From a virus, in the IMG/VR virus record IMGVR_UViG_3300035670_000610, positions 1 through 38,287 of that record: DNA of 38,287 nucleotides. One strand, 5' to 3'. Each line of letters begins with the position of its first letter. The first letter of the stretch is position 1. The notes under the pieces are model-generated. The model ran no database searches, was not told the origin of the DNA, and worked only from the letters and a program-made list of their open reading frames with translations. Below, one piece after another: positions 1,941-32,959 of the stretch. The translations under genes were made by a program, and so were the position numbers.

Positions 1941-1966
1941 GAATCAAATGACGAATGACGAATGGG

Positions 1967-3703
1967 TCAGGTGGCGACGGCGAGCGTGTCGAGCTTGGCT
2001 TTCATGTGCATCACGGCTTCGGCCAGCGGATGCGCGCCGCTGGCAGCCTTCGCGGCGCTCGCGGCGGCCTCGCGGCGCTGCTGCTGAGCCTTCGCGGTCC
2101 CGGGCGGCGGCACGTTCGGGGTGAAGGCGGGTTTGAGGCCGGTGGTGCCGTTGACGGAATGCAGCCAGCCGAGTCCACCGCCCATGTAAGTCTTTTTCAT
2201 GCCGCTGCCGCCCGTGGCCTGGCCCACGGCATCACTGGCGTTTTTGAACGCGCCTGAACTGAAGGCGGCAGCCGTTTTGCCTTTGCCACCTGTGTCGAAA
2301 CCGTTGGCCTTTTGCCAGGATGATCCGGCCTTAAAACGCCCCAACTCTCCCGGCTTGAAGCCAAACTCCTTGGCGGCCTGGAGCGCGTCAAACTCCGCCA
2401 GCCCGCCAAACCCCGCGTTGGCTCCGCTCTTCGCGTAGCTGAAGCCCATGATCTTTTTGCGGCCGGCCTCGGCGCTGTCCTTGTCCGTCTTGGCTTTGCT
2501 CTGCGCCTTGTTCGCGGTTTTGGCGTCATCATCAGTGGTTGCGTTGAGCTTCTCTGCCCAGTTGGTCGTTTCCTGGAGGGCTTTAGTAGCCTCCGTTGCC
2601 GTTCCGATGATGTTTTGGAGCGCTTTAACGTGGGGCGTCTCATCCATCGGTTTGCCAGTGGTGATCGTCTGCCAGATCCCACGGACCATCTCCAAGTCCC
2701 CCATGATCGCAGCCGCCACCATGGAGCTCAGCTTCTCCAGTGAGCCCATGATAAGGCTCGGCAGGTTCCGGAAATGCTCCACGATCGCGTTGAAGGCGCG
2801 AATGCGGGCAATCATCATCACGTGATAAAAAGCCTCACCCACCTTCCCCTTCTCAATTGCTTTGGCGATCAGGGTGCTGGCGCTCCCTGTGATGCTGACG
2901 AGCTGAGTCAGATACCCCTTCACCGGCCCGTCATTGATCGGCTTGCCGATCTCGCGAAACACCGCGCCGATGTTGTCCTTCAGCGTGCTCCACAGGCCGA
3001 TGGTGGTCTTGCTCTGCTTCTCCATGCTGGATGCCCAGCGGCCGCCTTCGCCGGCGAGCTGCTGGAGGGCCTTTTGCATGTCGGAGAACCCCACCTTGCC
3101 CTCGCTCATGAGGTCGTTCAGGCCAGCGGTTGAAACGCTCAGCGCCTCGGCGAGCGATTGTTTGATCTCGCCCGCGCCGGCCTCCACGAATTGCTGCATG
3201 TCCTCGGCGTAGATCTTGCCCTGGCCAGCCATCTGTCCGTAAACGGTGGCGAGATTGCCGATGTCGGCCCCGGTGGCCGCGCTCACGTTGCCCAGCGCCA
3301 TGAGCTCGTCTTTGAGGGCTGCTGTGGGCACGCGGGCCGCCAGCAGCTTCTTTGCAGCCTCGGCGAGCTGCGGCAGCTCGAAGGGCGTCTGCGCACCCAT
3401 GGCTTGCAGCTCCGCCAGCGTGGCCTGGGCCTGCTCCATGGAGCCCGTAAGGGTCTCGAATTGAATCAGCGTCTGCTCGGCAGCGGCGGCCGACTTGACC
3501 GCGAATCCCGTGGCGGCAGCGGCCGCCGTGGCGAGCACGGTGACCATGCCGGCGACAGCGGCGGAGACCTTCAGGAACGCGCCCGACGACACTGAGCCCG
3601 CCTCTTTGCTGCCCGCGATGAATCGCCCCTGCTCATCACGCGCCTTCTTCATCGGCCCGGAAAATCCGTCCGACAGCTTGAGCATGTATTCGAGCGTGTT
3701 CAT
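1967..3703 (-). CDS. Tail tape measure protein
   Basis: 578 aa. It has the typical tape-measure domain: a segment like FETLTGS, then a helix, TPFELPQLAEAAKKLLA, and a repeated helical core through about residue 260. A hydrophobic Ala/Val-rich segment lies near residues 45-75. These features match the TP901/Mu-type tape measure family, which sets tail length and is ejected into the host. It is short for the family, predicting a short siphovirus tail. The stop codon lies in a tandem-repeat gap and the start is next to a GTTCGC array. Confidence 0.88.
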   Translation of the reverse strand: MNTLEYMLKLSDGFSGPMKKARDEQGRFIAGSKEAGSVSSGAFLKVSAAVAGMVTVLATAAAAATGFAVKSAAAAEQTLIQFETLTGSMEQAQATLAELQAMGAQTPFELPQLAEAAKKLLAARVPTAALKDELMALGNVSAATGADIGNLATVYGQMAGQGKIYAEDMQQFVEAGAGEIKQSLAEALSVSTAGLNDLMSEGKVGFSDMQKALQQLAGEGGRWASSMEKQSKTTIGLWSTLKDNIGAVFREIGKPINDGPVKGYLTQLVSITGSASTLIAKAIEKGKVGEAFYHVMMIARIRAFNAIVEHFRNLPSLIMGSLEKLSSMVAAAIMGDLEMVRGIWQTITTGKPMDETPHVKALQNIIGTATEATKALQETTNWAEKLNATTDDDAKTANKAQSKAKTDKDSAEAGRKKIMGFSYAKSGANAGFGGLAEFDALQAAKEFGFKPGELGRFKAGSSWQKANGFDTGGKGKTAAAFSSGAFKNASDAVGQATGGSGMKKTYMGGGLGWLHSVNGTTGLKPAFTPNVPPPGTAKAQQQRREAAASAAKAASGAHPLAEAVMHMKAKLDTLAVAT

Positions 3704-3709
3704 GGTTTA

Positions 3710-3752
3710 GTTCGCTGTTCGCCGTTCGCAGTTCGCGATTCGCTGTTCGCGG
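3710..3752. repeat. GTTCGCN short tandem repeat array
   Basis: About six heptamers of the form GTTCGC plus one variable base fill the gap between the tape measure start and the stop of the next gene. The last unit runs into the TTAA that supplies the neighbour's TAA stop. No ribosome-binding site is evident. Confidence 0.85.
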
Positions 3753-4184
3753 TTAAGCCGTGGCCGCGCCGGATTGCAGGAGCTGGCGGGCGTTGAAGCT
3801 GATTTGGGTGGCGCTTTTGACGATGGCCAAAACCGCGCCGTAATCGCCCGTCGCCAGATCGGCCACGGGCATCATCTTGCCGGCGGTGCGGCTCAGCACG
3901 AGCACGGTGTTGATGGCCAGGCCGTGGGAGCCGAGCGTCAGCGCTTCGTCCAGGTCGATGTATTCGACCGGCTGTCCGCCGGCGGCCACGGCATTGCAGG
4001 CCATGCCGGCAGGCACGCGGGCCGCCGCCGTGGCGCTGTCGCCATCGGCCAGGTTGGCGACGCCGGCAGAGACGTAAACGATGTCGCCCTGGGCCAGCGC
4101 CGCGCCACTGATCGCCCGCTGACGGGTGGCGAGCGCGGCAGCGCTGAAGGCGAGCGAGGCGGCGGTGATGGAGAGGTCGGCCAT
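3753..4184 (-). CDS. Small virion protein, decoration-like (143 aa)
   Basis: Ala/Val/Gly-rich, predicted all-beta, with no membrane span and no cysteine cluster. It lies between gp36 and the tape measure, where neck or tail-terminator proteins usually sit. The phrase GAALAQGDIVYV recalls head-decoration (DUF2190-like) proteins and resembles in style the protein at 6585-7406. Function is inferred from position and composition. Confidence 0.7.
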   Translation of the reverse strand: MADLSITAASLAFSAAALATRQRAISGAALAQGDIVYVSAGVANLADGDSATAAARVPAGMACNAVAAGGQPVEYIDLDEALTLGSHGLAINTVLVLSRTAGKMMPVADLATGDYGAVLAIVKSATQISFNARQLLQSGAATA

Positions 4185-4186
4185 AA

Positions 4187-4262
4187 GTCAGTGCGTCAGT
4201 GCGTCAGTGCGTCAGTGCGTCAATGAGTCAGTGAGTCAGTGAGTCAGTGAGTCAGTGAGTCA
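4187..4262. repeat. GTCAGTGN short tandem repeat array
   Basis: About nine octamers GTCAGTGC, then GTCAGTGA. The last three bases provide the TGA stop (reverse strand) of the gp36-like gene. The same octamer recurs at 14255-14309, 16980-17005, 23928-23960, 26899-26960 and 31620-31657. Confidence 0.9.
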
Positions 4263-31891: not shown

Positions 31892-31939
31892 CGGAACGCC
31901 GCAAGGCCTGAAGTCAGCGCGCACGGCTCCGCGCGATGA

Positions 31940-31967
31940 GAGAGGGCGGCCGGTTTAACGCCCTCTC
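31940..31967 (+). terminator. Strong hairpin before the tail chaperone genes
   Basis: Perfect 9-bp arms GAGAGGGCG/CGCCCTCTC with a 10-nt loop, 20 bp before the chaperone start. No T-tract; it could stabilise or limit the chaperone message. Confidence 0.45.
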
Positions 31968-31986
31968 CTCCAACCCTCACAATCCC

Positions 31987-32499
31987 ATGAACGACACCCC
32001 TCCTCCCCCACCAGCATCCAGCATCCAGGATCAAGTTTCCAGCAACAAGCCTGTCATCACCCAACGCGAGGCGAATCAGATGGCCTTCAATGCCGGCATC
32101 GCCGCCGAACAGGCCGCGAGCGCCCGGGGCGTGGGCGGCGAAGACGCCGCGACACTGCTGGACGCCGCCAGTGACGGCGTGGTCATCGCGGGTGTCAAAT
32201 TTCCCCCGCTGATGCCGGCCTTTGTGCTGATGCAAGACCGTCTGCAGACCTTTGCGAAGGCGAAGCCGATCCTGGATCATCCATCGGCCGACTGCGCGGC
32301 CACCGCTTTTATTTTAGCCGATCCGAAACGGGCCTGGGCGATGCTGCGGAGCAAGGAGGCCGATGCGGTGGAGACCTTTTATGAAGCCGTGATCGACTTC
32401 GGCCTGCAATTCACCGCCGCAGACTACAAGGCGCTCTTCGACTGGGTGGCGCTCGAAACGCGCCGCATGCAGAGCGGGGGTGAGACCTCGGGAAAGTAG
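31987..32499 (+). CDS. Tail assembly chaperone (gpG-type of lambda), shorter product
   Basis: 170 aa from ATG 31987. Low-complexity Pro N-terminus, then a helical body (MAFNAGIAAEQAAS, EAVIDFGLQFTAADYKALFDWV). The second frame, at -1, begins within the last codons. The stop TAG follows the heptamer G GGA AAG. Two-frame chaperones of this kind coat the tape measure during tail assembly. Identification rests on the frameshift architecture and context. Confidence 0.75.
   Translation: MNDTPPPPPASSIQDQVSSNKPVITQREANQMAFNAGIAAEQAASARGVGGEDAATLLDAASDGVVIAGVKFPPLMPAFVLMQDRLQTFAKAKPILDHPSADCAATAFILADPKRAWAMLRSKEADAVETFYEAVIDFGLQFTAADYKALFDWVALETRRMQSGGETSGK
32490..32496 (+). promoter_or_regulatory. 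Programmed -1 frameshift site GGGAAAG
   Basis: In the zero frame the bases read G GGA AAG, followed at once by TAG. This is the slippery heptamer used by lambda for gpG-gpGT. The -1 frame is open from 32484 and continues to 32829. A GGCGGC...GCCGCC stem just downstream (32502-32518) may stimulate slipping. Confidence 0.8.
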
Positions 32500-32831
32500 T
32501 CGGCGGCAAAGAGCCGCCGAAGACCGAGGGCGAGCTGGCAGAGGCGCTCTTCAAAATGGGCGCGCAGCTCAATGAGTGCAACGGCCCCGGCTGGATCCTC
32601 ACGCTGATCGAAGCCATGCGCGGCGAATGGGGCCGCACACTGGAGCAGGCCGTCTTCGAGGAGAGCTTGACGGCAGCCCTGTCGCTGTGGCCGGCGGTGC
32701 TGTCGCGCCACGGCGCCGAGATCACGGTCAACCATGCCGACAAGGCCCGCCAGAAGGCCAAGGTGGAAGCCATGGAGGTGATCAAGCAGCGCTTCACCAT
32801 CGTGCCGACGCCGAAGACGAAGAGGGAGTAG
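32496..32831 (+). CDS. Tail assembly chaperone extension (T part of the G-T fusion)
   Basis: Read after a -1 shift: VVGGKEPPKTEGELAEALFKMG through PTPKTKRE, 111 aa, giving a ~281-aa fusion with the upstream protein. The internal ATG at 32556 is probably not the true start. The C-terminal KARQKAKVEAMEVIKQRF is helical. In siphoviruses this extension binds the tape measure. Confidence 0.7.
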   Translation, partial: VVGGKEPPKTEGELAEALFKMGAQLNECNGPGWILTLIEAMRGEWGRTLEQAVFEESLTAALSLWPAVLSRHGAEITVNHADKARQKAKVEAMEVIKQRFTIVPTPKTKRE

Positions 32832-32950
32832 TTCGCGGTTCTCTGTTCGCAGTTCGCAGTTCGCAGTTCGCAGTTCGCAGTTCGCGGTTCGCGGTGCGCG
32901 GTGCGCAAGAGACGGTGTGAACGGTGAACAGCGAACAGAGAACAGCGAAC
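32831..32950. repeat. Fold-back GTTCGC array
   Basis: Forward GTTCGCGGTTCTCTGTTCGC (32831-32850) pairs 19 of 20 with its inverse at 32931-32950. Between them lie about ten more GTTCGCN units. The gap between the chaperone and the next gene contains nothing else. Confidence 0.85.
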
Positions 32951-32959
32951 AAGTCCTTC

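What the first reader, a model, noticed from the sequence alone, without database searches (positions are those of the whole stretch)
1941..32959. Two sorts of gene boundary: 4-nt overlaps or gap-specific 6-8-bp tandem repeats
About a dozen junctions overlap as ATGA/GTGA. Most other gaps hold a tandem array: GTTCGCN, GTCAGTGN, GGAGACTT, CTAAGGG, AATGACG, TTTCAAG, GATCTCT, GAGAAC, GGGACAGT, CATCTAG/GATCCTA, CGCCCTN. Repeats often give the stop codon of one gene and touch the start codon of the next, leaving no Shine-Dalgarno site. They behave like spacers inserted at coupled junctions, and recall the heptamer arrays (STRR) of cyanobacteria.
Basis: partly seen in the sequence, partly recalled or inferred. 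Interest (0 to 1): 0.8.

Follow-up and report, generated by a model that had tools for sequence, protein, structure and literature searches.

The report
Seven-base repeats filling phage gene gaps
The gaps between genes of this Verrucomicrobia phage are packed with short tandem repeats of 7 or 8 bases; related phages carry different repeat words in the same gaps, and the host bacteria also grow such repeats, apparently only where genes start without a ribosome-binding (Shine-Dalgarno) site, so they look like fast-changing filler between genes.

Summary
The window is a Mu-like phage. It carries 38 arrays of period 6-9; 29 lie wholly inside gaps (0.01 expected), 64 versus 2.4 per 10 kb in gaps versus genes. 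25 of 41 gaps of 10 bp or more hold one; none of the 13 overlapping or near-abutting junctions does. Exact 4-nt overlaps number 7, not about a dozen.

Colinear relatives carry a different word, or none, in the same gap. The period is sharply 7 or 8. Unrelated phages and a host chromosome share the vocabulary, and a prophage is 11 times denser in arrays than its own host chromosome. In host species, the rplP-rpmC gap shows a 7-nt duplication step (17 to 24 nt) and then 38-40-nt arrays, while the rplN gap, with an SD-like site in 29/29 species, has none.

The missing SD is a property of the host clade, not caused by arrays. Overlaps in the three Mu-like phages often carry an SD-like core (17/27 against about 15%).

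Best reading: STRR-type repeats, born by 7-8-nt tandem duplication in SD-free spacers and replaced over time. What fixes the period and recurring words is unexplained.

The parts
1947..1964 (+). AATGACG x2.6, fills most of the 26-bp gap g2|g3
3710..3754 (+). GTTCGCN x6.4, last base N = T,C,A,G,T,G; fills 88% of gap g3|g4
4187..4263 (+). GTCAGTG(C/A) octamer x9.6, supplies the stop codon of g5 and fills 97% of gap g4|g5
5513..5534 (+). CTTGAAA x3.1 between g6 and g7
6544..6573 (+). CTAAGGG x4.3 in gap g7|g8; G455 and the G001 prophage have no such array there
7421..7451 (+). degenerate GGAGACTT array in gap g8|g9 (found by TRF, below the threshold of my detector); GGAACTT array in the G001 prophage
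8520..8595 (-). inverted pair of GAGACAAT octamer arrays in gap g9|g10; folds as a long hairpin (-44.7 kcal/mol, z -4.1); G455 has related GAGAC arrays in both orientations in this gap
9070..9114 (+). GGAGACNN octamer x5.6 in gap g10|g11
11261..11286 (+). GGACAGTG x3.2 in the gap next to g14
12978..13009 (+). GTTCGCA/GTTCTCA alternating heptamers in gap g14|g15
14206..14310 (+). GGAGACNN array followed by GTCAGTGN array in gap g16|g17
15384..15413 (+). GTTCGCN x4.3, gap g18|g19
15802..15844 (+). CGAGAA hexamers, gap g19|g20; the only period-6 intergenic array in the window
16951..17013 (+). GTTCGCN array followed by ACTGACTC array, gap g20|g21; TTTCAGGATTCAGG array there in the G001 prophage
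18380..18413 (+). CTGGATG x4.9, gap g23|g24 (36 bp); GGATGAG in G455 (38 bp), GCTTTGA/GAGTTTT in the G001 prophage (37 bp)
19431..19466 (+). GATCTCT/GATTTCT x5, gap g26|g27
19861..19890 (+). AATGACG/AATGCGG, gap g27|g28 beside the MuA-like transposase gene
23224..23252 (+). GAGACTTG x3.6, gap g30|g31; GGAGGGC/TAAGGGC-type heptamers there in G455
23925..23961 (+). GTCAGTGN, gap g31|g32
26364..26426 (+). GTTCGC(G/A)/GTTCTCA x9, starts in the stop codon of g38
26896..26958 (+). CACTGACT/CACTGACG x7.9, ends 3 nt before the start of g40
27499..27652 (+). CTAGATC x5.3 then GCATC(T/C)A x16 fill gap g40|g41 (152 bp); in G455 this junction is an ATGA overlap
29970..30013 (+). GTTTCA(A/C) x6, 93% of gap g43|g44
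31074..31104 (+). GTTCGCA x4.4, gap g45|g46 (48 bp); AAAGATC in G455 (41 bp), GTTTCAA/GATTCAC in the G001 prophage (44 bp)
31623..31658 (+). CAGTGAAT/CAGTGAGT x4.5, ends 2 nt before the start of g47
32831..32951 (+). GTTCGCN x11 followed by its inverted array (GAACAGC); predicted hairpin -65 kcal/mol, z -7.0
1293..1296 (-). 4-nt ATGA overlap g1/g2; others at 17517-17520, 17819-17822, 24602-24605, 33232-33235, 33837-33840, 34974-34977
   Evidence: none holds an array
19896..21866 (-). MuA-like transposase; with the MuB-like protein at 15855-16862 (-) it marks the phage as Mu-like
   Evidence: PHROGs 310 and 296

Best explanation
The arrays are STRR-type heptanucleotide and octanucleotide repeats of intergenic spacers in phages of Verrucomicrobiaceae-like hosts. 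Shown: they sit almost only in gaps, have a sharp period of 7 (less often 8), are absent from overlap junctions, share words between unrelated phages and a host chromosome, and differ in word between relatives at one junction. Inferred: a unit is born by a 7-8-nt tandem duplication in a spacer that carries no Shine-Dalgarno site, grows by further duplication, drifts at one or two positions per unit, and is eventually replaced. Selection tolerates any word that does not disturb an SD-independent leader, so the arrays act as replaceable spacers between co-transcribed genes rather than as sequence-specific signals. A minority in inverted pairs form strong hairpins and may terminate or stabilise transcripts (inferred). 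Not explained: why the period is 7-8, why the same words recur, and why phages hold many more arrays than the host chromosome.
For: Gap enrichment and chance. Sharp period in intergenic DNA: 7:104, 8:36, 14:23, 16:5 against 6:6 and 9:0. Birth step in the host core genome: rplP-rpmC gap ACAACGCGAACTGAATT (17 nt) and ATAACGCGAACCGCGAACTGAATT (24 nt), then 38-40-nt arrays, among 30 species; rplN gap with an SD-like core in 29/29 and no array. Turnover at homologous junctions. Short-term stability: identical arrays in phages of 99.6-100% identity; one long perfect array differs by 4 units at about 96% identity. SD-poor host leaders and published SD-scarce Verrucomicrobia (PMC10783764). C-rich, G-poor mRNA-sense arrays (93:27) match array-free leaders of the same genomes (113:20 in the host).
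Against: Independent local birth predicts different words in each gap, but GTTCGCN occupies nine places in the window and seven words recur in the unrelated phage G003 (0.57 expected). Changes within arrays cluster on one or two positions of the unit about three-fold more than uniform mutation would give. The GTTCGC-type word is not enriched as single copies in array-free host leaders. The hosts keep MutS, so loss of mismatch repair does not explain the repeats. The spacer function itself has no direct test here.
Confidence: 0.55

Rival explanations
1. The arrays are binding sites for a translation factor or RNA-binding protein (S1, Csp or CsrA-like), as proposed for TAACTGA repeats upstream of start codons in Beggiatoaceae. 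The constant core of each unit would be the site and the free base a spacer.
For: Position right before start codons without an SD; strongly conserved core positions with one or two free positions; published precedent as a proposal (PMC4679880).
Against: Some twenty different words serve the same position and homologous junctions use different words, so a single recognition sequence is hard to uphold; array leaders are not clearly less structured than shuffles; most host gaps do without arrays.
Confidence: 0.15
2. The arrays are synthesised or dispersed by a dedicated activity (host or phage) that copies a short template repeatedly, adding one or two untemplated bases per round, and spreads the same words among gaps, phages and host.
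For: Recurring vocabulary across unrelated phages and host; core-plus-free-base units such as GTTC[GT]CN, GTCAGTGN, GGAGACNN; sharp period; whole arrays replaced by other words at fixed junctions; 11-fold enrichment in the G001 prophage.
Against: No enzyme, template RNA or common flank was found; the rplP-rpmC ladder and the 4-unit length change look like ordinary tandem duplication.
Confidence: 0.15
3. The arrays are recombination joints at gene boundaries that promote module exchange between phages of one host.
For: Same words in unrelated phages; some unique window genes (g4, g11-g13) lie between arrays.
Against: Counted by eye, junctions next to genes missing from G455 hold arrays less often (11 of 30) than junctions between shared genes (15 of 24), and identity jumps are not larger across arrays.
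Confidence: 0.05
4. Assembly or gene-calling artefact.
For: The window is a metagenomic virus record and genes were called with a simple codon model.
Against: Identical arrays in independent assemblies of near-identical phages; the same words in bacterial MAGs and in other viral records.
Confidence: 0.01

Closest known systems
STRR heptanucleotide repeats of heterocystous cyanobacteria
   Same: Tandem 7-nt units, mostly intergenic, several word families per genome, copy-number variation.
   Different: Here in phages of Verrucomicrobia-like hosts, period 7 and 8, about twenty words in 38 kb, filling most of the gaps that hold them, with word turnover at homologous junctions.
GGGAATC / GGGGA(C/T)T repeats of Xanthomonas and Nostoc (Rehm et al. 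2015, PMC4692102)
   Same: Heptamers between aligned ORFs, close to start or stop codons, G-rich strand preferentially opposite to the downstream mRNA, length and sequence variable between relatives.
   Different: One G4-forming word family and a bias for four units there; most words here have no G-tract, and the orientation bias here equals that of array-free leaders.
TAACTGA direct repeats of Beggiatoaceae (MacGregor 2015, PMC4679880)
   Same: Heptamers just upstream of start codons, repeat-bearing gaps mostly without an SD, also in ribosomal operons.
   Different: One fixed word; here many words and replacement between relatives.
GTAG-tagged REP palindromes (PMC3733652)
   Same: Small intergenic repeats of similar look are also present in this window (CTGTAGCTGGCCTC...GAGGCCAG and CCTGAGGTC...GACCTCAGCTACAG).
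   Different: Palindromic elements of about 58 bp, separate from the 7-8-nt arrays.

Membership tests
STRR-type intergenic heptamer repeats | Tandem units of 7 nt | tested here: met
   Period 7 dominates with 8 second and almost nothing else
STRR-type intergenic heptamer repeats | Concentration in intergenic DNA | tested here: met
   63.7 vs 2.4 arrays per 10 kb, gaps vs genes
STRR-type intergenic heptamer repeats | Dispersed recurrence of the same words in one genome | tested here: met
   21 canonical words in 35 arrays, 34.4 distinct expected
STRR-type intergenic heptamer repeats | Identity with the named cyanobacterial words | not tested
   Cyanobacterial genomes and STRR word lists were not searched; likeness rests on unit length and location
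GGGAATC-type G-quadruplex repeats | Runs of G in each unit able to form a quadruplex | tested here: not met
   Most words (GTTCGCN, GTCAGTGN, GCATCYA, AATGACG, GTTTCAA) have no G-tract of three
GGGAATC-type G-quadruplex repeats | mRNA-sense strand C-rich upstream of the ORF | tested here: met
   93 C>G against 27 G>C over all sets; but array-free gaps are alike
TAACTGA-type leader repeats | Position within a few nt of the start codon, no SD | tested here: met
   16 of 27 arrays end within 8 nt of the start; 0 of 19 with an SD core
TAACTGA-type leader repeats | One fixed word | tested here: not met
   About twenty words; different words at homologous junctions
Phase-variation SSRs | Copy-number polymorphism between near-identical genomes | tested here: inconclusive
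   None at 99.6-100% identity; one array with a 4-unit change at about 96%

The most novel reading that the evidence does not exclude
Verrucomicrobia and their phages share an active repeat-writing process that lays down arrays of a constant 5-7-nt core plus one or two free bases at SD-free gene boundaries, drawing on a common word list and rewriting a junction with a new word over time; the phages are the hot spots of this process.
Probability: 0.12. Interest if true: 0.85.

Novelty: new variant of a known kind. Interest (0 to 1): 0.58.

Why it matters
Intergenic heptamer repeats have been noted in a few bacterial groups without an accepted origin or function. This phage family and its Verrucomicrobiaceae hosts give a set of homologous junctions in which birth (an exact 7-nt duplication beside a ribosomal protein gene), growth, drift at fixed positions and replacement can be read directly. 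They also tie the arrays to SD-free initiation: overlaps often keep an SD-like core and never hold arrays here, and a gene with a conserved SD-like site never held one in 29 species. That makes both the origin (why 7-8 nt) and the function (spacer or signal) testable.

Tried and rejected
Unstructured-leader selection: array RNA is not clearly less structured than composition-matched shuffles (window z about 0; a small effect in one set only). Array words as pre-existing leader motifs: GTTCGC-type words are not enriched as single copies in array-free host leaders, others at most about two-fold. Loss of mismatch repair: MutS present in all five host genomes checked. Recombination joints: arrays are not commoner beside genes that differ between the window and G455. 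Fixed strand relative to the phage genome: all 17 matches to the strict GTTCGCNGTTCGCNGTTCGC pattern lie on +, but other words flip and G003 arrays follow the mRNA sense, so no replication-strand rule is claimed. The first test of within-unit variation used a null that counts one mutation twice; one search replaced it. One search selects arrays by their likeness to a word, so it overstates constancy of the specified positions. The word-selected viral loci cannot be used for word-frequency claims about those words.
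Full report
What the window is. The record is a 38,287-bp virus contig. PHROG matches give a Mu-like phage: MuA-like transposase (19896-21866), MuB-like protein (15855-16862), head, neck and tape-measure genes on the minus strand, tail-fibre and portal genes on the plus strand. Two colinear relatives were found: IMG/VR record 3300035703_000213 (here G455; major capsid 93% identical, about 77% in nucleotides) and a prophage in a Verrucomicrobiaceae MAG (G001, record JABTUN010000003; mostly 30-87% amino-acid identity).

Observation. 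With a period-independent scoring of self-match, 38 arrays of period 6-9 appear, 0.2 expected from a Markov-1 model of the window. 29 lie wholly inside gaps; a per-gap Markov model gives 0.01. Gaps hold 63.7 arrays per 10 kb, genes 2.4. 25 of 41 gaps of 10 bp or more have one; none of 7 exact 4-nt overlaps, 2 other overlaps and 4 gaps under 10 bp does. Exact 4-nt overlaps number 7 in my gene calls.

Period. Across the phage and host stretches studied, intergenic arrays have period 7 (104), 8 (36), or their doubles 14 (23) and 16 (5); periods 6, 9, 10, 11 and 12 together give 11. In 1.2 Mb of the G001 host contig the intergenic count is 7:23, 8:1, 6:1. A plain slippage process would be expected to favour short periods, so this sharpness needs its own cause; Rehm et al. 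report the earlier suggestion that polymerase contact length is involved (PMC4692102).

Same junction, different word. With flanking genes as anchors, gap g23|g24 is 36, 38 and 37 bp in the window, G455 and G001, filled with CTGGATG, GGATGAG and GCTTTGA/GAGTTTT; gap g45|g46 is 48, 41 and 44 bp with GTTCGCA, AAAGATC and GTTTCAA/GATTCAC; gap g8|g9 has GGAGACTT in the window and GGAACTT in G001. Gap g40|g41 is 152 bp of arrays in the window, an ATGA overlap in G455, and 32 bp in G001; the reverse happens at g47|g48, where only G001 has an array. g9|g10 keeps related GAGAC words in the window and G455. The overlaps g53/g54 and g54/g55 are overlaps in all three. A second, unrelated set of phages (L195, L206; flanks 79-94% identical) also shows replaced arrays in fixed junctions, several of them inverted pairs that would form hairpins. 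At 99.6-100% identity arrays are identical, and at about 96% one long perfect CTGGATG array differs by exactly four units. So arrays are stable over short times and are replaced over long ones.

Vocabulary. The window has 21 canonical words in 35 arrays where letter-shuffled words would give 34. It shares seven words with G003, a transposable phage with different head genes (0.57 expected; G003 was found through GTTCGC, and five of the seven are outside that family), and four with the G001 chromosome, which was chosen by protein homology alone (0.53 expected). A tyrosine-integrase phage (G456) carries the same style of array too.

Within the unit. Counting independent changes by parsimony against uniform point mutation, changes hit fewer positions than expected (163 against 227 over 67 arrays) and are about three times more concentrated. 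Typical units are GTTC[GT]CN, GTCAGTGN, GGAGACNN, GCATC[CT]A and AATGNNG. Either the core is kept by selection or by exchange between arrays, or the copying process leaves certain positions free. This is open.

Host. The G001 chromosome has 38 arrays of period 7-8 in 1.2 Mb, its own prophage 13 in 37 kb: 11-fold, P = 2e-9. Host arrays sit beside ordinary genes (glucuronate isomerase, a two-component system, the S10 ribosomal operon). In the family, 15 of 68 species hold a strict GTTCGCNGTTCGCNGTTCGC match and none holds the reversed control. The rplP-rpmC gap shows what looks like a birth series among 30 species: ACAACGCGAACTGAATT (17 nt), ATAACGCGAACCGCGAACTGAATT (24 nt, an exact CGCGAAC duplication), then 38-40-nt arrays such as CCACCACGCGAACCGAGAACCGCGAACTGCGAACTGAATT. 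In the same operon rplN has an SD-like core in 29 of 29 species and no array. The direction of change was not polarised on a tree. MutS is present.

Two kinds of boundary. SD-like cores are scarce before host genes with a gap (79 of 793), in line with published SD-scarce Verrucomicrobia such as Akkermansia (PMC10783764). Array-proximal starts in the window have none (0 of 19). Exact overlaps in the three Mu-like phages carry a core in 17 of 27, against 14-17% at phase-matched positions inside the same genes; the other phages and hosts do not show it clearly. The three phages share ancestry, so the 27 are not independent; the window alone gives 5 of 7. In mRNA sense arrays are C-rich and G-poor (93 to 27), but array-free gaps are too (113 to 20 in the host), so orientation follows leader composition.

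Mechanism. The simplest account is birth by 7-8-nt tandem duplication in SD-free spacers, growth, drift, and replacement, with little demand on the word. The birth series, the four-unit length change and the restriction to SD-free gaps support it. The recurring vocabulary, the fixed free positions and the excess in phages are not explained by it, and leave room for exchange between arrays or for a dedicated writing activity. No binding factor or enzyme was identified, and the spacer role is inferred.

Known kinds. In unit length and place these are like the STRR repeats, the GGGAATC repeats of Xanthomonas and Nostoc, and the TAACTGA repeats of Beggiatoaceae (PMC4692102, PMC4679880). They differ in the number of words, the octamer class, the turnover at homologous junctions and the density in phages. 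A library search for heptamer repeats in bacteriophages found no paper, which is weak evidence of novelty because the library holds open-licence papers only.

Noticed in passing
window 4761-4872, 15050-15130, 26427-26480, 28081-28224, 30213-30320: GTAG-tagged REP-like double palindromes (CTGTAGCTGGCCTC-GAGGCCAG and CCTGAGGTC-GACCTCAGCTACAG), tandem in two gaps; only 1 of 68 family genomes (G009, L103) has a strict match.
   Followed up: partly
L206 1443-1636, 5201-5717 and 7492-7790: A different GTAG palindrome (GTAGCCGCGGATGNATATCCGCGCGG) recurs in gaps of another array-rich phage set.
   Followed up: no
window 32832-32956; 8514-8616; 14425-14515: Inverted arrays fold as strong hairpins (z -7.0, -4.1, -5.2); candidate terminators. 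The third lies inside a called gene.
   Followed up: partly
window 9157-11074: DNA methyltransferase and neighbouring small genes without a match in either colinear relative, bounded by arrays of different words.
   Followed up: no
window 19908-19950: In-frame GGCTTCGAG nonamer repeat at the C-terminal end of the transposase gene.
   Followed up: no
L102 (G067 C1 2584001-2604000): A 20-kb stretch, also held as a viral record (L017), with 12 arrays in a host that has almost none elsewhere in 400 kb sampled; words partly different (CCGCTCA, CACGCCT, GTCTCCGT).
   Followed up: partly
L085-L087 (G001:C3, about 480-517 kb): Prophage colinear with the window in a Verrucomicrobiaceae MAG, 11-fold richer in arrays than its host chromosome.
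   Followed up: yes
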